DNA of 64,000 nucleotides from Nocardiopsis terrae (lineage in GTDB: Bacteria; Actinomycetota; Actinomycetes; Streptosporangiales; Streptosporangiaceae), in the NCBI RefSeq assembly GCF_014651695.1, contig NZ_BMXJ01000002.1, positions 744,001 through 808,000 of the forward strand, in the 5' to 3' direction. The notes beneath the pieces are model-generated. The model had not been told where the DNA came from, made no database searches, and saw only the letters and a program-made list of their open reading frames with translations. Below, piece by piece: positions 12,025-19,037 of this stretch; positions within the stretch are counted from its first letter, which is position 1, and every line of letters starts with the position of its first letter. A program made the translations under genes and the position numbers.

Positions 12025-12055
12025 AGTCTGGAAGTTCATGTGGACATGAAGTCAA
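12025..12055 (-). promoter_or_regulatory. MerR-type promoter and operator with 19-bp spacer
   Basis: Reading leftward, -35 TTGACT (12055-12050) and -10 CAGACT (12030-12025) are separated by 19 bp. The spacer is spanned by the perfect palindrome TTCATGTCCACATGAA (12035-12050). Over-long spacers filled by a dyad are the hallmark of promoters that MerR proteins untwist on activation. The dyad also covers the merR start codon, so binding should repress merR itself. Confidence 0.75.
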
Positions 12056-12510
12056 GCAACGGGAGCCGACCGGTCGACGGGCGCTCCGGCGGGGAACTGA
12101 CCATCGGCGAGCTGGCCCGGTCCTTCGGGCTGGCCACACACGTTCTGCGGCACTGGGAGTCGGTGGGTGTGCTCGAACCTGCCCGGCGCACGGGCGGACA
12201 GCGGCGTTACACGGACGAGCAGCGGTGCCAGGTCGAGCTGATCCTGCGGGCGCAACGGGCGGGGATGAGCCTGGCGCGTATCCGCGAGGCACTCAACGCC
12301 CCGGACCAGCAGACCCTGCGGTCCCTGCTCGGCGCCCACCTTGCGGAGTTGGCCCAGCGCATGGAGCAGCTGCGCGAGGCCATGGAGATGTTGGAGCACG
12401 GCATGGTCTGCCGGCACCCGAACCTTCTGGAGTGCCCGGGAGCACGGGGGATCCTGGAGGACACCGCCGCCGTGGGCACGGTGGAGACTTCGGGGACCGG
12501 CGGGGAGTAG
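12046..12510 (+). CDS. MerR-family transcriptional regulator
   Basis: 154 residues from ATG at 12046 (an in-frame GTG lies 6 bp upstream; neither has a clear ribosome binding site, so translation may be leaderless). Residues 17-85 form the winged helix: LTIGELARSFGLATHVLRHW, then ARRTGGQRRYTDEQ. A long dimerisation helix follows (LLGAHLAELAQRMEQLREAMEML). The tail HGMVCRHPNLLECPG has two Cys and two His, which may sense metal, thiol or redox signals as in other MerR proteins; the inducer is not identifiable. It divergently faces a methyltransferase and lies 83 bp before the STM4015-4011 operon on the same strand. Confidence 0.88.
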   Translation: MKSSNGSRPVDGRSGGELTIGELARSFGLATHVLRHWESVGVLEPARRTGGQRRYTDEQRCQVELILRAQRAGMSLARIREALNAPDQQTLRSLLGAHLAELAQRMEQLREAMEMLEHGMVCRHPNLLECPGARGILEDTAAVGTVETSGTGGE

Positions 12511-12593: not shown

Positions 12594-13676
12594 ATGATCC
12601 GAGAACACCTCACCGAGTACGCCGGGCTCCCCGTGGTCGAGTTCCTGGACGCGGGCGCGGAGGAGAACCTCCTCCGGATGGCCGCCTACAGGGCGCGCAG
12701 GGCGGGGGAGGAGCCCCCGGCCTCGACCCCGCACCGAGGCCGCATGGAGGAGGCCGCGAAGGAGCCGGACTCGGTGGCGTGGCGGCTGCGGCTCAGCAGT
12801 TACAGGGAGGAGTTCGTCTCCTACCTGGCCAGGTTCGTCGAGGAGGTGGACACCACCCGGGTGACGGCCCTGGTGATCGGCGACTGGGGGTTCAGTGACG
12901 GCAGCGACCTCTCCTCGCGCGGCCTCCGGGACGCTCTGATCGGGCACGCCGAGGCCTTCCCTGCGCTGCGCTCACTGTTCGTCGGTGACGTCACCTTCGA
13001 GGAGAACGAGATCTCCTGGATCCAGCAGTGCGACCTCGCCCCCCTCCTGGCCGCCTACCCCCGCCTGGAGGAGCTGACCGTACGCGGGGTCGGTGAGACC
13101 TACCAGGGCGCCAGCACGCTCTCCCTGCACGTTCCCGAACACCGTGCCCTGCGTTCGCTCACCCTCCAGAGCGGCGGCCTGCCCGGCCGGGTGGTCCGCG
13201 AGGTGCTCTCGTCCGGGCTGCCCGCGCTGGAACGCCTGGAGCTGTGGCTGGGCGTGGAGGACTACGGCGGCGACGCCACCCCCGAGGACCTCGCGCCCCT
13301 GCTGTCCGGGAAGGCCTTCCCCGAGCTCCGCCACCTGGGCCTGCGCAACTCCCAGCGCACCGGTGTGTGGGTGCGGGCCCTGGCCGGGGCCCCGGTCACC
13401 GCCCGCCTGTCCTCCCTGGACCTGTCCCTGGGCTCCCTGCGCAACCGCGACGCCGAGCACCTGCTGGCCGCCGTGCCGGTGTTCGCGCACCTGGAGAGCC
13501 TGGACCTGCACCACCACTACCTGGGCGAGGAGAGCACCGAACGCGTGCGGGCCGCCCTCACCGGAGCGGGCGTCCGGGTCGACCTCTCCGACCGACAGGG
13601 GGACGGCGAGGACGACGGGGAGACCGAGGACCAGGAAGAGGACGACTACGACTACTACCCGGCCGTCGGCGAGTGA
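12594..13676 (+). CDS. STM4015-family leucine-rich repeat protein
   Basis: 360 residues from an ATG with AGAAGAGAG just upstream. After an N-terminal region (FLDAGAEENLL; WRLRLSSYREEFVSYLARFV) come leucine-rich repeats, e.g. YPRLEELTVRG, HRALRSLTLQSGGL, LPALERLELWLG, FPELRHLGLRNSQ, FAHLESLDLHHHYL. The last 30 residues are highly acidic with Asp/Glu runs and Tyr (DDYDYYP). First gene of a five-gene operon matching Salmonella STM4015-STM4011 families; all junctions overlap or nearly touch. No biochemical function is established for the family. LRRs normally bind protein or peptide, so a scaffold or substrate-presenting role is possible. Confidence 0.85.
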   Translation: MIREHLTEYAGLPVVEFLDAGAEENLLRMAAYRARRAGEEPPASTPHRGRMEEAAKEPDSVAWRLRLSSYREEFVSYLARFVEEVDTTRVTALVIGDWGFSDGSDLSSRGLRDALIGHAEAFPALRSLFVGDVTFEENEISWIQQCDLAPLLAAYPRLEELTVRGVGETYQGASTLSLHVPEHRALRSLTLQSGGLPGRVVREVLSSGLPALERLELWLGVEDYGGDATPEDLAPLLSGKAFPELRHLGLRNSQRTGVWVRALAGAPVTARLSSLDLSLGSLRNRDAEHLLAAVPVFAHLESLDLHHHYLGEESTERVRAALTGAGVRVDLSDRQGDGEDDGETEDQEEDDYDYYPAVGE

Positions 13677-14914
13677 GCCCGGATCCGCCCCCGGCCCCTC
13701 CGCCCCCGCTCGACCGGCCGCTGGTCGTGGTGTGCGTGCCGGGCAACCGCCGTCCGGCGCTGTTCACCGAGGCCGCTCGGGCCGCGGGGCTCGCCGATCC
13801 GGTCGCGCTCCCCTGGCGCAACCTCGCGGATCCGGCCGCCGGACCGGTCACCCTGCCCGAGGGCGCCCTGGTCCGGGTGGACTCGGCGGGCGAGGACGCC
13901 GCCACCGCCCGTCTGCTTCGCGGCTGGTCCCACGACCCCGACCTCCACCGCGCCGAGGGCACCGCCGACCAGCACCGGGGGTTCGTCCGCGCCCTGGGAC
14001 GCCTGTCCGAGGCGGTGGCGGCCACCCCCGGCGCACACCTGGTCCAGGACACCGGCGACCTGGCCGACCTGTGCGACAAACGCCGCTGCCACGCCCGGCT
14101 GGCCACGGCGGGGGTTCCGGTCGCCCCGGCCCTGCCCGGCCCGGTCACCGGCTACGACCCACTGCGCGCGACGATGGCCGAGCACCGCTGGTCGAGGGTG
14201 TTCGTCAAACCCGCGCACGGCTCCTCGGCCTCCGGGGTGGTCGCGCTGGCCACCGGCTCGGGCGGCCGGATCAGGGCGGTCACCTCGGCCGACCTCGTGC
14301 GGGACGGCGAGGGGCCGGTGGCGCTGTACAACTCCCTGCGCCTGCGCACCTACACCACCGGGGCCGAGGTGGCGGCGGTCGTGGACGCGCTCGCCCCCGA
14401 CGGCCTGCACGTGGAGCGCTGGGTGCCCAAGGCGGGCTTCGCCGGACGCGTGGTGGACCTGCGCGTCCTGGTGGTCGCCGGGCGCGCCACCCACGTGGTG
14501 GTGCGCTCCTCCCGCTCCCCCATGACCAACCTGCACCTGGGCAACGCCCGGGGCGACCTGGCGGCCCTGCGGGAAAGCGTGGGTCCTCGGGTCTGGCGGG
14601 AGGCCATGGCCACGGCGGAGGCGGCCGCGGCGGTCTTCCCCGGCACCCTGCACGCCGGGGTGGACCTGATGGCCTCGCCCGGCTGGCGGCAGTTCACGGT
14701 CTGCGAGGTCAACGCGTTCGGCGACCTCCTGCCCGGGGTCCTGCACGAGGGCCGAAGCACCCACGCCGAACAACTGCACGCCCTCGCGACGGGTCGCTTC
14801 CCCGTGCCCCCGCCCGTCCCGTCCCGTCCCGCCTCCCGGCCGCTTCCGGTCCGCCCTCTCCCACGGAAACCCGATGAACACCGACACCACCAGCACCGCC
14901 AGACCCAGCGCTGA
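13673..14914 (+). CDS. STM4014-family ATP-grasp protein
   Basis: 413 residues from a GTG that overlaps the preceding stop (GTGA). The first 15 residues are Pro-rich and variable; LVVVCVPGNRRPALFTEAAR starts the N-terminal domain. ATP-grasp features: VFVKPAHGSSASGVVAL (nucleotide-binding Lys and flexible loop), HVERWVPKAGFAGRVVDLRV, and CEVNAFGDLLPG with the metal-binding Glu/Asn. ATP-grasp enzymes form amide or ester bonds through acyl-phosphates. SSRSPMTNLHLGNARGDL also matches substrate-side loops of tetrahydromethanopterin/RimK-like ligases. Together with two radical SAM enzymes it suggests peptide or small-molecule ligation, but the substrate is unknown. Confidence 0.85.
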   Translation: MSPDPPPAPPPPLDRPLVVVCVPGNRRPALFTEAARAAGLADPVALPWRNLADPAAGPVTLPEGALVRVDSAGEDAATARLLRGWSHDPDLHRAEGTADQHRGFVRALGRLSEAVAATPGAHLVQDTGDLADLCDKRRCHARLATAGVPVAPALPGPVTGYDPLRATMAEHRWSRVFVKPAHGSSASGVVALATGSGGRIRAVTSADLVRDGEGPVALYNSLRLRTYTTGAEVAAVVDALAPDGLHVERWVPKAGFAGRVVDLRVLVVAGRATHVVVRSSRSPMTNLHLGNARGDLAALRESVGPRVWREAMATAEAAAAVFPGTLHAGVDLMASPGWRQFTVCEVNAFGDLLPGVLHEGRSTHAEQLHALATGRFPVPPPVPSRPASRPLPVRPLPRKPDEHRHHQHRQTQR

Positions 14915-14936
14915 CGCAGGTCTGACGCAGCCCGAC

Positions 14937-15785
14937 ATGAACACCGTGGTCGGCACGCACGACATCCTGCTGCTCACCCTGGACACCCTGCGCCACGACG
15001 TCGCGGTCGAGCTCGCCGGGGCCGGACGCACCCCGAACCTGGCCCGGCTGCTGCCCGAGGGCGGCTGGGAGGAGCGGCACTCCCCCGCGAGCTTCACCTA
15101 CGCCTCCCATCTGGCCATGCTCGCCGGGTTCCTGCCCACCCCGGCCTCACCCGGCCCGCACCCGCGCCTGTTCGCCGCGTCCTTCCCCGGCAGTGTCTCC
15201 ACCGCGCCCGGCACCTGGACGTTCGAGGCGCCCGACCTCGCCTCCGGCCTGGCCCGGGCGGGTTACCACACCGCCTGTGTGGGCGGTACGGGCTTCTTCA
15301 ACCGCAGGTCGGAGCTGGGTTCGGTGCTGCCGGACCTGTTCGCCGAAAGCCACTGGGAGGAGTCCTTCGGCGTCGCCGACCCGCGCTCCTTCGAGAACCA
15401 GGTGGACCGCGCCGTCGAGGTGGCCGCCGCGACCCCCGCGGAACAACCCCTGTTCCTGCTGCTCAACGTGTCCGCCCTGCACCAGCCCAACTGGTTCCAC
15501 CTGCCCGGCGCGACCAGGGAGGACGGGGACACCCGGGCCAGCCACGCGGCGGCCCTGGAGTACGTCGACCGCCACCTCCCCCCGTTGCTGTCCGCCGTGT
15601 CCGCCCGCCGTCCCTGCTTCGCGATCGTGTGCTCGGACCACGGCACCGCCTACGGCGAGGACGGCTACACCGGCCACCGGATCGGCCACGAGACCGTCTG
15701 GACCGTCCCCTACACCCACGCCGTCCTCCCCCGCGGGTACGGCGCCGAGCCCGCATCCGAGCAGCCCGAGAAGGAGGACGCATGA
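14937..15785 (+). CDS. STM4013/SEN3800-family hydrolase (alkaline phosphatase/sulfatase fold)
   Basis: 282 residues from the ATG at 14937, 22 bp after the STM4014 stop; an in-frame ATG at 14874 would add 21 low-complexity residues and overlap by 41 bp. THDILLLTLDTLRHDVA is the N-terminal metal-binding strand of the superfamily, SFTYASHLAMLAGFLP the position of the nucleophile loop, and CSDHGTAYGEDGYTGHRIGH the C-terminal metal site with Asp-His and His. A phosphate, phosphonate or sulfate ester hydrolase or transferase is therefore likely. The stop overlaps the next start (ATGA), which shows coupling with STM4012. Confidence 0.85.
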   Translation: MNTVVGTHDILLLTLDTLRHDVAVELAGAGRTPNLARLLPEGGWEERHSPASFTYASHLAMLAGFLPTPASPGPHPRLFAASFPGSVSTAPGTWTFEAPDLASGLARAGYHTACVGGTGFFNRRSELGSVLPDLFAESHWEESFGVADPRSFENQVDRAVEVAAATPAEQPLFLLLNVSALHQPNWFHLPGATREDGDTRASHAAALEYVDRHLPPLLSAVSARRPCFAIVCSDHGTAYGEDGYTGHRIGHETVWTVPYTHAVLPRGYGAEPASEQPEKEDA

Positions 15786-17206
15786 GCGTCATCCCGATGG
15801 CCGAACCCGTCCGTGCGGACTCCCCGTACCGCTCGTACGTGTACGCCTACCCGCACAAGAGCGCCTACCGCCCCTTCACCGAGCGGCCCGCCCTGGCCGA
15901 CCTGTGGCGGGAGGAGGACGTCAGCTCGCTCTCGCTGTACGCGCACATCCCGTTCTGCGAGATGCGCTGCGGGTTCTGCAACCTCTTCACCCGCTCCACT
16001 CCCCCGGCGGAGCAGGTCACCGCCTACCTGAACGCCCTGGAGCGCCAGGCCGGGACGGTCGCCTCCGCCCTGCCCGCCGGCGCCTCGTTCGCCCGGGCCG
16101 CCCTGGGCGGGGGCACCCCCACCTACCTGACCGCCGAAGAGCTGGTGCGGGTCTACGACCTGATCGAACGCTCCTTCGGGGTGGACCTCACCACGATCCC
16201 GGTGTCGGTGGAGACCTCACCGGCCACCGCCACCCCGGACCGCCTTCAGGTGTTGGACGAACGCGGCGCGACCCGGATCAGTATGGGCGTGCAGAGCTTC
16301 GTCGACTCCGAGGCGCACGCCGCCGGACGCCCGCAGAAACGCGGGGAGGTGGACCGCGCGCTGGCCGACATCCGCGAGCACGCCCGGGCCGGCCTCAACG
16401 TGGACCTCATCTACGGCATCGAACGGCAGACCCCGAAGACCTGGGAGTACTCCCTGGACACCGCGCTGTCCTGGGAGCCGGAGGAGATCTACCTCTACCC
16501 GCTGTACGTGCGACCGCTCACCGGGCTGGGCCGCCGCGCCCGCGCCTGGGACGACCACCGGCTTGCGCTGTACCGCCAGGGCCGCGACCACCTGCGCGAA
16601 CGCGGCTACGAGCAGGTGTCCATGCGCATGTTCCGGCGGGCCGACGCCCCCGACTCCGCAGGGCACGGCGCGGCGGCCGGGGCCCCGGACTACTGCTGCC
16701 AGACCGACGGCATGATCGGTCTGGGCTGCGGCGCCCGCTCCTACACCGCCTCGACCCACTACTCCTTCGACTACGCGGTGGGCGTGGGCAGGGTGCGGTC
16801 GATCATCTCCGACTACGTGGGGCGCGACGCGGCCGAGTTCGCACACGCCGAGGTCGGCTTCGCCCTGGACGGGGAGGAGCGCCGCCGGAGGCACGTGTTG
16901 CAGTCACTGCTGCGCGTGGAAGGGCTGGCGGTCGCCGACTACACGGCCCGGTTCGCCGCGCACCCGGTGTCGGACTTCCCCGTCGAGTTCGCGGCGCTGG
17001 CCGAACGCGGCTGGCTGGAGCCGGGAGACGGGATCGGGAAAGGTATCCAGGACGCCCAGGACGTCGGGGGCGCCGGGGCCTCCGCTTCCGGTAGTTCCGG
17101 GCTGCTCCGGCTCACCGAGGAGGGGCTGGCGCACTCGGACGCGATCGGCCCGGACTTCTTCTCCGCCCGGGTGAACCGGCTGATGGCCGAGTACGAGGCG
17201 GGGTGA
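15782..17206 (+). CDS. STM4012-family radical SAM protein (HemN/HemW-like)
   Basis: 474 residues, starting in an ATGA overlap. The radical SAM cluster is CEMRCGFC (Cys 59, 63, 66), preceded by SLYAHIPF as in HemN relatives. LGGGTPTYL is the SAM-binding GGE-equivalent loop, VSVETSP and TRISMGVQSF are HemN-like strands, and LNVDLIYGIERQTPKTWEYS follows. A C-terminal HemN-type domain (RVEGLAVADYTARF) ends with LLRLTEEGLAHSDAIGPDFF. True coproporphyrinogen dehydrogenase residues cannot be verified, and the context of STM4011-4015 argues for another substrate. The end overlaps STM4011 (GTGA). Confidence 0.88.
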   Translation: MSVIPMAEPVRADSPYRSYVYAYPHKSAYRPFTERPALADLWREEDVSSLSLYAHIPFCEMRCGFCNLFTRSTPPAEQVTAYLNALERQAGTVASALPAGASFARAALGGGTPTYLTAEELVRVYDLIERSFGVDLTTIPVSVETSPATATPDRLQVLDERGATRISMGVQSFVDSEAHAAGRPQKRGEVDRALADIREHARAGLNVDLIYGIERQTPKTWEYSLDTALSWEPEEIYLYPLYVRPLTGLGRRARAWDDHRLALYRQGRDHLRERGYEQVSMRMFRRADAPDSAGHGAAAGAPDYCCQTDGMIGLGCGARSYTASTHYSFDYAVGVGRVRSIISDYVGRDAAEFAHAEVGFALDGEERRRRHVLQSLLRVEGLAVADYTARFAAHPVSDFPVEFAALAERGWLEPGDGIGKGIQDAQDVGGAGASASGSSGLLRLTEEGLAHSDAIGPDFFSARVNRLMAEYEAG

Positions 17207-18150
17207 GCCGCGTGAGCACCTGCGGTCCCGTCGATCTTCCCGATCCCGCGCTCGTGCGCCCCGCCACGGCGCGGGCCCTGCCCGCGCACCTCACCCTGCT
17301 GTACCGGGGGCCGCTGGCCAGCTGCGACTACGACTGTCCGTACTGCCCCTTCGCCAAGCGCCGGGACAGCCCGGAGACCCTGCGCGCGGACCGGGCCGCC
17401 CTGGAGCGGTTCACCGACTGGGTGGCCACCCGCGCCGAGGAGGCCCCCGGCACCCGGTTCTCGGTGCTGTTCACCCCGTGGGGCGAGGGGTTGACCCGTT
17501 CCTGGTACCGACGGGCGATGGTTCGGCTGAGCCGCCTGCCGCACGTGGAGCGGGTGGCGATCCAGACCAACCTGAGCGGGCGCACGGCCTGGCTCGCCGA
17601 CTGCGACCGGGACTCGGTGGCCCTGTGGACCACCTACCACCCGGGTGAGGTCAGCCACGGGCGCTTCCTGGACAAGGCGCGCGAGCTCTCCGCGACGGGG
17701 ATCCGGTTCAGCGTGGGGGTGGTGGGGCAGCCCGAGCACCTGGAGGCGGCGGTGCGGATGCGCGCCGACCTGCCCGAGGGGGTGTACCTGTGGGTGAACG
17801 CCGCCGAGGGGGCCACCTACACCGACGCCGAGGCGGCCTCCTGGCAGGAGATCGACCCGCACTTCCACTACAGCCGCCTGCCGCACCCCAGCCGCGGGCT
17901 GCCCTGTCGTACGGGTGAGAGTGTGCTGTCCGTGAACGGGGACGGCGACGTGCGCCGCTGCCACTTCGTGGACACCCCTCTGGGCAACCTCTACGACGGG
18001 TCCTTCGCGGACCGCCTGGGGCCGGCTCCGTGCCCGCTGACCAGTTGCGACTGCCACATCGGCTACGTGCACCTGGAGACCCTGGACCTGTACGACGTGT
18101 TCCGGGGCGGGGTGATCGAGCGGATCCCGGCCCGCACGGGCGGCTGGTGA
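17203..18150 (+). CDS. STM4011-family radical SAM protein with auxiliary cysteine cluster
   Basis: 315 residues from a GTG overlapping the STM4012 stop. The radical SAM motif CDYDCPYC has Cys 41, 45 and 48. LFTPWGEGLTRSWYRRAM corresponds to the GGE region. The C-terminal third holds Cys 235, 253, 277, 282 and 284 (PCRTGESVL, RRCHF, CPLTSCDCHIGY). This pattern resembles a SPASM/twitch auxiliary iron-sulfur domain, typical of enzymes that modify ribosomally made peptides or carbohydrates. Last gene of the operon; a HAD gene with its own promoter follows 74 bp later. Confidence 0.87.
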   Translation: MSRVSTCGPVDLPDPALVRPATARALPAHLTLLYRGPLASCDYDCPYCPFAKRRDSPETLRADRAALERFTDWVATRAEEAPGTRFSVLFTPWGEGLTRSWYRRAMVRLSRLPHVERVAIQTNLSGRTAWLADCDRDSVALWTTYHPGEVSHGRFLDKARELSATGIRFSVGVVGQPEHLEAAVRMRADLPEGVYLWVNAAEGATYTDAEAASWQEIDPHFHYSRLPHPSRGLPCRTGESVLSVNGDGDVRRCHFVDTPLGNLYDGSFADRLGPAPCPLTSCDCHIGYVHLETLDLYDVFRGGVIERIPARTGGW

Positions 18151-18224: not shown

Positions 18225-19037
18225 ATGGTCCTTCCCAGAGTCATCGCCACCGACCTTGACGGAACCCTGCTCGGCCGGAGCGGTGAGGTCTCCGACCGCA
18301 ACCGCCGAGCCCTGACCGCCGCCGTGGAGGCCGGGATCAAGGTGGTCATCGTGACCGCCCGTCCGCCGCGCACCACCGAGGCCTTCGCCGACATGTTCGA
18401 CTGCGCCGCCGTGGTCTGCGGCAACGGCGCCCACACCCGACTGCCGGGGGAGCCGTCGCCGCTGGTGCGGGCCATCGACCGCGACACCTCCGGAACGATC
18501 GTGGCCAAACTCCGGGGCGCCCTGCCCGAACTGGGCTTCGGCGTGGAGACCGGCGCGGGGTTCTACCACGACGCCGACTACCACCTGGAGCCATGGGTAC
18601 CGCGTGATTGGGTGAGCGGGGTGCTGGACGACACCGACGCCCTGTTGGAGGCCGCGACCCCGGTCACCAAGCTCATCGCCCGTTCCAGCACACACCCGGT
18701 GCACCTGATGTACGAGGCGGCGGTGGCCTCGGTGGGGCCGCTCGCGGAGGCGACCTACTCGGGCCGCGCGGGGCTCGTGGAGCTGAGTGCCCCCGGTGTG
18801 AACAAGGGCAGCACGCTCGCGATGCTGTGCGAGCGCTGGGGCGTGTCCAGCGAGGAGGTCGTGGCCTTCGGTGACATGCCCAACGACCGGTCCGCCCTGA
18901 CCTGGGCCGGTTCCGGGTACGCGATGTCCAGCGGGCACCCCGAGCTGCTCGACCCCGCACTGGGGTTGAAGGTGGCCCCCTCCAGTTTCGAGGACGGTGT
19001 GGGCCGCGTGGTGGAGGACCTGCTGGAGCGGGCCTGA
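18225..19037 (+). CDS. Cof-type HAD-superfamily phosphatase
   Basis: 270 residues. HAD motif I is ATDLDGTLL (Asp nucleophile and general acid, about residues 8-16), motif II VIVTARPPRTT, the C2B cap spans roughly residues 85-190, motif III is NKGSTLAML (Lys) and motif IV FGDMPNDRSAL. Cof-type enzymes dephosphorylate sugar phosphates, FMN or similar; the substrate is unknown. It follows the STM4011 family gene but a promoter lies between, so membership in that pathway is not implied. Confidence 0.9.
   Translation: MVLPRVIATDLDGTLLGRSGEVSDRNRRALTAAVEAGIKVVIVTARPPRTTEAFADMFDCAAVVCGNGAHTRLPGEPSPLVRAIDRDTSGTIVAKLRGALPELGFGVETGAGFYHDADYHLEPWVPRDWVSGVLDDTDALLEAATPVTKLIARSSTHPVHLMYEAAVASVGPLAEATYSGRAGLVELSAPGVNKGSTLAMLCERWGVSSEEVVAFGDMPNDRSALTWAGSGYAMSSGHPELLDPALGLKVAPSSFEDGVGRVVEDLLERA

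What the first reader, a model, noticed from the sequence alone, without database searches (positions are those of the whole stretch)
12594..18150. STM4015-STM4014-STM4013-STM4012-STM4011 operon: an uncharacterised two-radical-SAM pathway
Five genes run head to tail with GTGA/ATGA overlaps or a 22-bp gap: LRR protein, ATP-grasp, alkaline-phosphatase-fold hydrolase, HemN-like radical SAM and a radical SAM with auxiliary cysteines. I recognise these as the families named after Salmonella STM4011-4015, for which I know no assigned function. The combination (ligase, ester hydrolase/transferase, two radical enzymes and a peptide-binding-type LRR) is what one expects for modification of a peptide or assembly of a small molecule, with the LRR protein presenting or being the substrate.
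Basis: partly seen in the sequence, partly recalled or inferred. Interest (0 to 1): 0.85.

Follow-up and report, generated by a model that had tools for sequence, protein, structure and literature searches.

The report
LRR protein with enzyme-modified C-terminal tail
A widespread but unexplained bacterial gene set couples two radical enzymes, a ligase and a hydrolase to a fast-changing repeat protein whose last residue is nearly always glutamate, which suggests that the repeat protein's tail is where the enzymes attach or build something.

Summary
They behave as one unit: in 101 genomes of the order, STM4015 and STM4014 mark the same 56 genomes, and 55 of these also have STM4011 above cut-off. 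Of 80 named loci, 76 hold all five; 4 are cut by contig ends. No function turned up in the papers searched. Main new result: STM4015 changes fastest, is often multiplied while the enzymes stay single, and ends in glutamate in 138 of 138 filtered copies (71 of 71 after removing similar ones), behind an aromatic-x-x-V-x motif and a variable linker. One tail-less copy was found elsewhere. The ligase STM4014 most resembles LysX, graspetide ligases and RimK, which act on glutamate carboxylates of proteins or peptides. Best reading: STM4015 is the substrate or carrier, charged on its terminal glutamate by STM4014 and then worked on by the other enzymes. A HAD phosphatase is a likely sixth member in some lineages, a DUF6745 gene pair in others. 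Chemistry and biological role are untested.

The parts
12594..13676 (+). STM4015: leucine-rich-repeat protein, 360 aa; proposed substrate or carrier
   Evidence: NCBIfam NF038076, 369 bits, cut-off 275; related to PDB 2ra8, Bacteroides fragilis, 2.5e-43
13653..13673 (+). C-terminal tail YYPAVGE of STM4015; terminal Glu codon 13671-13673, behind an acidic variable linker
   Evidence: Last residue Glu in 138 of 138 filtered copies, 71 of 71 non-redundant; 25 of 26 further 3' ends
13673..14914 (+). STM4014: ATP-grasp ligase, 413 aa, RimK/LysX-like
   Evidence: NF038074, 431 bits, cut-off 175; profile match to LysX 1uc8, 3.8e-6; model pLDDT 88.8, best PDB fold match LysX 3vpd, 4.6e-12
14937..15785 (+). 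STM4013: alkaline-phosphatase-superfamily hydrolase or transferase, 282 aa; D16, T54, H182, D234, H235, H247, H251 invariant in 18 sequences
   Evidence: NF038075, 406 bits, cut-off 250; alignment A5; nearest solved relatives nucleotide pyrophosphatases and sulfatases; roles of the residues recalled from the superfamily
15782..17206 (+). STM4012: HemN-like radical SAM enzyme, 474 aa; C59, C63, C66 invariant in 18 sequences
   Evidence: NF006067, 615 bits, cut-off 380; alignment A6
17203..18150 (+). STM4011: radical SAM enzyme with auxiliary cysteines, 315 aa; C41, C45, C48 plus C235, C253, C277, C282, C284 invariant in 9 sequences
   Evidence: NF038073, 404 bits, cut-off 200; alignment A1; profile positions 194-267 match SkfB 6efn, 1.1e-4
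18225..19037 (+). Cof-type HAD-IIB phosphatase, 270 aa; likely sixth member in this lineage
   Evidence: Pfam Hydrolase_3, 128 bits, cut-off 20.9; follows STM4011 in 10 of 80 named loci, L017-L026, in Salmonella and E. coli; fused to STM4011 in Bacteroides finegoldii

Best explanation
The cassette modifies, or builds a group on, the LRR protein STM4015. STM4014 uses ATP to activate the carboxylate of the terminal Glu of STM4015 and joins an amine to it, probably an amino acid or small building block. The radical SAM enzymes STM4011 and STM4012 then rearrange or extend the attached group or the neighbouring conserved aromatic/Val residues, and STM4013 (with the HAD phosphatase where present) removes or transfers a phosphate- or sulfate-type group. 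The finished group most likely stays on STM4015, so that a diversifying LRR recognition domain carries a constant chemical tail. Shown by sequence: the gene unit, the tail conservation, the ligase kinship, the catalytic motifs. Inferred: the site of attachment, the order of steps, the nature of the group and its retention.
For: Terminal Glu in 138 of 138 filtered STM4015 copies, 71 of 71 non-redundant, entropy 0.0 bits at the last residue against 2.4-3.6 in the linker positions -8 to -20 and 1.4-3.3 at the last residue of the other four proteins. Same kind of tail in Salmonella, Bacteroides, Methylobacterium, Deinococcus, Paenibacillus, Calothrix, E. coli. STM4015 is the most divergent of the five (median pairwise difference 0.51 against 0.26-0.41) and the only one that multiplies: 33 of 72 loci with two or more copies, up to 7 per genome against one full STM4011. 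In the 101 genomes no STM4015 over cut-off occurs without STM4014. STM4014 is nearest to LysX, graspetide ligase PsnB, ArgX and RimK; LysX joins its cargo to the gamma-carboxylate of the C-terminal Glu of LysW (PMC10433800, passages). STM4011's auxiliary region resembles the peptide maturase SkfB.
Against: No modification has been observed. Conserved C-termini can also be docking signals. One STM4015 copy, L114, lacks the tail. The LysX profile match adds up two stretches that are not significant alone (0.16 and 0.38) and vanishes at 1e-3 when only the 31 actinobacterial sequences are used. The fold search also returns DcsG, Ddl and PPIP5K, which act on free small substrates. Retention on the protein rests on a neighbour screen whose clusters were not annotated. 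A Calothrix plasmid stretch has an STM4015 relative with the tail but no other cassette gene; its chromosome was not searched.
Confidence: 0.5

Rival explanations
1. STM4015 is a reusable carrier: a small molecule is loaded on its C-terminal Glu, matured there, and then cut off as a diffusible product, as in LysW or pearlin pathways.
For: Same sequence evidence for the tail and the ligase. Carrier-bound synthesis with a C-terminal Glu and a radical SAM enzyme acting on a carrier-bound amino acid both have precedents (PMC9303977, passages).
Against: No peptidase was seen among the annotated genes of the seven opened plasmid cassettes and their direct neighbours, and no further family recurred in more than 24 of the loci L008-L096 (clusters not annotated). 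Many diverged LRR copies per enzyme set are not needed for one product.
Confidence: 0.22
2. The tail is a RiPP-like core: STM4014 makes an internal lactam or lactone with the terminal Glu, as in graspetides, and the radical SAM enzymes cross-link the aromatic residue.
For: PsnB with its precursor is the second-best fold match of STM4014 (4.8e-12); SkfB, a peptide maturase, matches STM4011; a conserved aromatic residue lies at -6 in most tails.
Against: No invariant Ser, Thr or Lys partner in the tail: -2 and -4 are mixtures of small residues. STM4015 is a folded protein, not a short precursor peptide.
Confidence: 0.12
3. The tail is not modified: it is a docking or recognition motif by which the LRR protein holds the enzymes or another partner, and the enzymes act on a separate small molecule.
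For: Conserved free C-termini commonly serve as recognition motifs, and LRR domains bind partners (general knowledge). Fold matches of STM4014 include ligases of free small substrates.
Against: Does not by itself explain why the partner ligase is closest to enzymes that act on protein or peptide Glu carboxylates, nor several diverged copies per enzyme set.
Confidence: 0.12

Closest known systems
NCBIfam families STM4011 to STM4015 (Salmonella locus; STM4013, 4014 and 4015 typed hypoth_equivalog, 4012 equivalog, 4011 subfamily)
   Same: All five window proteins exceed the curated cut-offs; same gene order in Salmonella and E. coli.
   Different: The families carry names but no stated function. 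Salmonella and E. coli have one STM4015 each in the loci read; many actinobacteria have several.
Amino-group carrier protein systems (LysW with LysX/ArgX)
   Same: Carrier ends in Glu at the exact C-terminus; ligase of the RimK/LysX ATP-grasp group.
   Different: LysW is a small zinc protein ending EDWGE; STM4015 is an LRR protein ending Y/F-x-x-V-x-E. The LysX motif GSWGR is not found: the corresponding place in STM4014 reads GSSASG. No Lys-pathway enzymes; two radical SAM enzymes instead.
Pearlins (PEARL carrier-peptide pathways)
   Same: C-terminal loading of a ribosomal carrier followed by a radical SAM step (PMC9303977, passages).
   Different: Loading there is by a tRNA-dependent PEARL, here by an ATP-grasp enzyme; the carrier there is a short peptide.
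Graspetides and RimK/S6
   Same: ATP-grasp enzymes that modify Glu carboxylates of a peptide or protein; second-tier fold matches of STM4014.
   Different: No precursor peptide; substrate here a folded LRR protein; no Ser, Thr or Lys acceptor conserved in the tail.
PDB 2ra8, Bacteroides fragilis Q64V53
   Same: Solved structure of an STM4015 relative; profile E 2.6e-67, reaching the last profile position.
   Different: Deposited as uncharacterized. A related Bacteroides protein has an N-terminal WGR domain not seen in the window protein.

Membership tests
STM4011-4015 cassette | Each protein over the curated cut-off of its NCBIfam model | tested here: met
   Five of five
STM4011-4015 cassette | Five genes in conserved order in one unit | tested here: met
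   Window; 76 of 80 named loci, 4 cut at contig ends
Amino-group carrier protein system | Carrier protein with a C-terminal Glu | tested here: met
   138 of 138 filtered copies; one exception elsewhere, L114
Amino-group carrier protein system | Small zinc-binding carrier with EDWGE end | tested here: not met
   LRR protein of 360 aa ending YYPAVGE
Amino-group carrier protein system | LysX/ArgX-type ligase | tested here: inconclusive
   Nearest by profile and fold, but no GSWGR motif and no match with 31 sequences alone
Amino-group carrier protein system | Covalent cargo on the gamma-carboxylate of the Glu, released by a peptidase | not testable with these tools
   Needs biochemistry
Pearlin (PEARL) pathway | PEARL (lanthipeptide-dehydratase-like) ligase in the cluster | tested here: not met
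   None of the five proteins nor the HAD matches such a family
Graspetide | Short precursor peptide with Thr/Ser/Lys and Glu/Asp core | tested here: not met
   Tail has no conserved Ser, Thr or Lys; no separate ORF family of 70 aa or more in over 24 loci; shorter ORFs not screened
Known anti-phage defence systems | Match to PADLOC models | tested here: not met
   7 proteins scanned; one partial weak match, STM4012 to PDC-M51A, 2.5e-6

The most novel reading that the evidence does not exclude
A new kind of protein-tethered chemistry: a multiplied, fast-diversifying LRR recognition family carries a constant group assembled by two radical SAM enzymes on its C-terminal Glu, so that one enzyme set arms many different binding domains.
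Probability: 0.3. Interest if true: 0.9.

Novelty: new variant of a known kind. Interest (0 to 1): 0.72.

Why it matters
The cassette occurs in Actinomycetota, Pseudomonadota (154 of 5,426 complete E. coli genomes), Deinococcota and Bacillota, and in decayed form in Bacteroidota. Its two radical SAM families, ATP-grasp family and phosphatase-superfamily family carry no stated role. A proposed substrate and a single residue to watch turn these families into a problem that one intact-protein mass spectrum can open. If right, it extends carrier-protein logic, so far known to me for small zinc proteins and short peptides, to a folded multi-copy LRR family.

Tried and rejected
Separate precursor: no ORF family of 70 aa or more, beyond cassette, HAD and DUF6745 pair, recurred in more than 24 of the loci L008-L096; smaller ORFs were not screened and the clusters were not annotated.

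Minimal three-gene system in Bacteroides: L012 first seemed to lack STM4013 and STM4012; one search found an STM4013 N-terminal piece and an STM4012 C-terminal piece with the middle missing, so it is a decayed copy.

STM4012-STM4011 fusions: STM4011 was missing from L033, L037, L043 and L051; one search showed an artefact of my ORF bookkeeping. L053 likewise has STM4014.

HAD unrelated to the cassette in enterobacteria: megablast with the Salmonella locus matched 4,902 of 5,426 E. coli genomes over about 5% of the query, presumably through typA. With E. coli queries the whole region, the HAD alone and STM4015 alone each match 154 of 5,426; that these are the same genomes is inferred from equal counts and from the 40 listed records.

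DUF6745 as a second tail substrate: its C-terminal end is conserved, but so is the whole domain, so this says little.

STM4013 paralogue as a clue: it lies by an AdoMet synthetase and a tRNA-synthetase-like protein; a search of PMC2922099 for such partners found none. Led nowhere.

Viral contigs: 26 partial matches at 21-43% identity, not examined further. Defence library: one weak partial match.
Full report
WHAT IS THERE. NCBIfam places them in STM4015 (LRR), STM4014 (ATP-grasp), STM4013 (alkaline-phosphatase superfamily), STM4012 (HemN-like radical SAM) and STM4011 (radical SAM), all above curated cut-offs. Pfam sees the LRR, sulfatase and STM4012 radical SAM folds above cut-off; for STM4014 an ATP-grasp model, and for STM4011 both SPASM and Radical_SAM, score below cut-off. 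Catalytic motifs look intact: CX3CX2C in both radical enzymes, five further invariant cysteines in STM4011, and metal-site and Thr positions in STM4013 (their roles are recalled). The closest named STM4011 relatives (78-83% identity) are mostly Nocardiopsis, with Streptomonospora at 82% and one record labelled Glycomyces fuscus at 80%, so the window is probably from Nocardiopsis or close to it; this is inference.

ONE UNIT. In a phylum-wide draw STM4015 is rare (3 of 149 genomes). In 101 genomes of the order, STM4015 and STM4014 over cut-off mark the same 56 genomes. STM4011 over cut-off marks 55 of those plus G232, which has a partial STM4011 alone; the remaining genome of the 56, G210, has an STM4011 cut at a contig end. 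Below cut-off there are further matches: STM4015 in G151 and G164 (short LRR-level stretches), STM4011 in G211 and G213, STM4014 in 29 genomes, as expected for a wide superfamily. STM4013 and STM4012 were searched in 30 of the 101 genomes: over cut-off in 15 of 15 with and 0 of 15 without the cassette; STM4013 has sub-cut-off paralogues in 4 of the 30.

Of these 80, 72 were complete by script, 4 more after correcting my bookkeeping, and 4 are cut at contig ends. In the plasmid collection 13 records carry STM4011; all 13 also carry STM4015, and a Calothrix record carries an STM4015 relative alone. I opened 9 of the 13: seven (L010, L011, L013, L014, L016, L156, L157) are annotated with all five genes, Bacteroides finegoldii is decayed, and an Embleya record has no annotation there. 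In E. coli the whole 5.5-kb region, the HAD alone and STM4015 alone each match 154 of 5,426 complete genomes; in one of these, E500002, STM4015 is annotated as frameshifted. Pairwise distances among the five proteins over 79 loci correlate at r 0.54-0.95.

THE TAIL. STM4015 has an unusual end. In one search, 140 of 142 frames end in Glu; the other two are hits whose frame leaves the homologous stretch. With filters for length and register, 138 of 138 end in Glu, 71 of 71 after removing sequences 70% alike; entropy is 0.0 bits at the last residue, 0.6-1.0 at -3, -4 and -6, and 2.4-3.6 at -8 to -20. In the same call the last residues of the other four proteins have 1.4-3.3 bits. The pattern is aromatic-x-x-V/L/M/I/A-x-Glu in 135 of 138; the three others (Salmonella, Methylobacterium, Rhodococcus) have the aromatic residue shifted. 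Tails of this kind occur in Bacteroides, Paenibacillus, Deinococcus, Calothrix and E. coli too. As a test against my reading I fetched 12 copies for which the profile match stopped before the tail: 11 still end in Glu, and one (L114) lacks the tail with no sign of it in another frame; over all 26 complete 3' ends in that call, 25 end in Glu.

STM4015 is also the most divergent of the five (median pairwise difference 0.51 against 0.26-0.41) and the one that multiplies: two to six copies in 33 of 72 complete loci, up to seven per genome against one full STM4011, plus distant copies that keep the tail. A table row in a 2009 study of positive selection in Salmonella lists STM4015 with the value 0.0693 for Ty (PMC2784778, that passage only). 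Many substrates for one enzyme set, with a constant end, is what one expects of a modification site.

THE LIGASE. A profile of 36 STM4014 sequences finds LysX (1uc8, 1uc9, 3vpd; 4e-6 to 9e-6), then RimK (2e-4) and weaker ATP-grasp enzymes; the LysX score adds up two stretches that are not significant alone, and with only the 31 actinobacterial sequences nothing passes 1e-3. An AlphaFold2 model (pLDDT 88.8, pTM 0.86) matches LysX 3vpd best (4.6e-12), then graspetide ligase PsnB with its precursor, DcsG, ArgX with LysW, LysX/ArgX with LysW-gamma-AAA and RimK, with TM-scores of about 0.5 on the longer query and 0.6-0.75 on the targets; Ddl and PPIP5K also match. The fold alone therefore does not prove a protein substrate. 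LysX joins the amino group of its cargo to the gamma-carboxylate of the C-terminal Glu of LysW, and its GSWGR motif reads the LysW tail (PMC10433800, passages). In STM4014 the corresponding place reads GSSASG, which fits a different tail but also means that STM4014 is not a LysX.

OTHER ENZYMES AND PARTNERS. STM4011's auxiliary region resembles SkfB, a peptide maturase (1.1e-4). STM4013 is nearest to nucleotide pyrophosphatases and sulfatases (2.4e-7 and weaker). A Cof-type HAD phosphatase follows STM4011 in the window, in 10 of the 80 named loci (L017-L026), in Salmonella and in E. coli, and is fused to STM4011 in B. finegoldii. In 57 of the 80 loci a DUF6745 gene, and in 59 a small partner gene, lies near the cassette; none of the ten HAD loci has DUF6745. 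DUF6745 also sits by the cassette in Deinococcus and Methylobacterium, and Deinococcus taeanensis has both it and a HAD gene nearby. In the 30 genomes, high-scoring DUF6745 (327-381 bits) occurs in 5 of 15 cassette genomes, each time near STM4011 by coordinates, and in 0 of 15 others; weaker paralogues (91-125 bits) occur in both groups.

READING. The most economical account is that STM4015 is the substrate: its terminal Glu is charged by STM4014, and the radical and hydrolytic enzymes work on what is attached or on the tail. Whether the group stays or is released is open; multiplied LRR copies and the lack of a widely recurrent further family favour staying, weakly. None of the chemistry has been tested.

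PRIOR KNOWLEDGE. Searches for the locus names found two papers, each with one table entry; for the family names none; for DUF6745 none; for combinations of LRR, radical SAM and ATP-grasp none; for 2ra8 or Q64V53 none. Term searches inside a graspetide survey (PMC8939145) and an ATP-grasp survey (PMC4431377) found no leucine-rich or STM40 names. The library holds open-licence PMC papers only, so earlier remarks in closed journals are possible.

Noticed in passing
L007:9106-10194 (own genome, G000:C4, outside the window): Second STM4015, 362 aa, without other cassette genes in the 18-kb stretch, yet ending LYPAVAE.
   Followed up: yes
L161:8370-9269 (own genome, G000:C8): STM4013 paralogue below cut-off beside an AdoMet synthetase (PF01941) and a class I tRNA-synthetase-like protein, conserved in two further genomes.
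   Followed up: partly
window about 12043-12510 +: MerR-family regulator just upstream of STM4015 on the same strand.
   Followed up: no
L016:8421-10040 and near the cassette in 57 of the loci L017-L096: DUF6745 gene (PF20530) and a small partner protein with GHAH and HEEH motifs lie by the cassette where the HAD gene is absent.
   Followed up: partly
L012:9513-13530 (Bacteroides finegoldii): Decayed cassette: only pieces of STM4013 and STM4012 remain; STM4011 is fused to a HAD domain and STM4015 has an N-terminal WGR domain.
   Followed up: yes
L154:301-1148 (E. coli E500002): STM4015 annotated as a frameshifted pseudogene while the other cassette genes are annotated as intact.
   Followed up: no
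OR850900.1 (hit H33, phage collection): A 5,922-base record named Salmonella phage holds an STM4011 relative; perhaps a host fragment under a phage name.
   Followed up: no
L114 (G234:C1:909000-910600): The one otherwise readable STM4015 copy without the C-terminal Glu tail, ending NFVADGRDF.
   Followed up: yes
L121 and L122 (G231:C1): Two STM4015-STM4014 pairs in one genome, of which only one has STM4013, STM4012 and STM4011 behind it in the stretches read.
   Followed up: no
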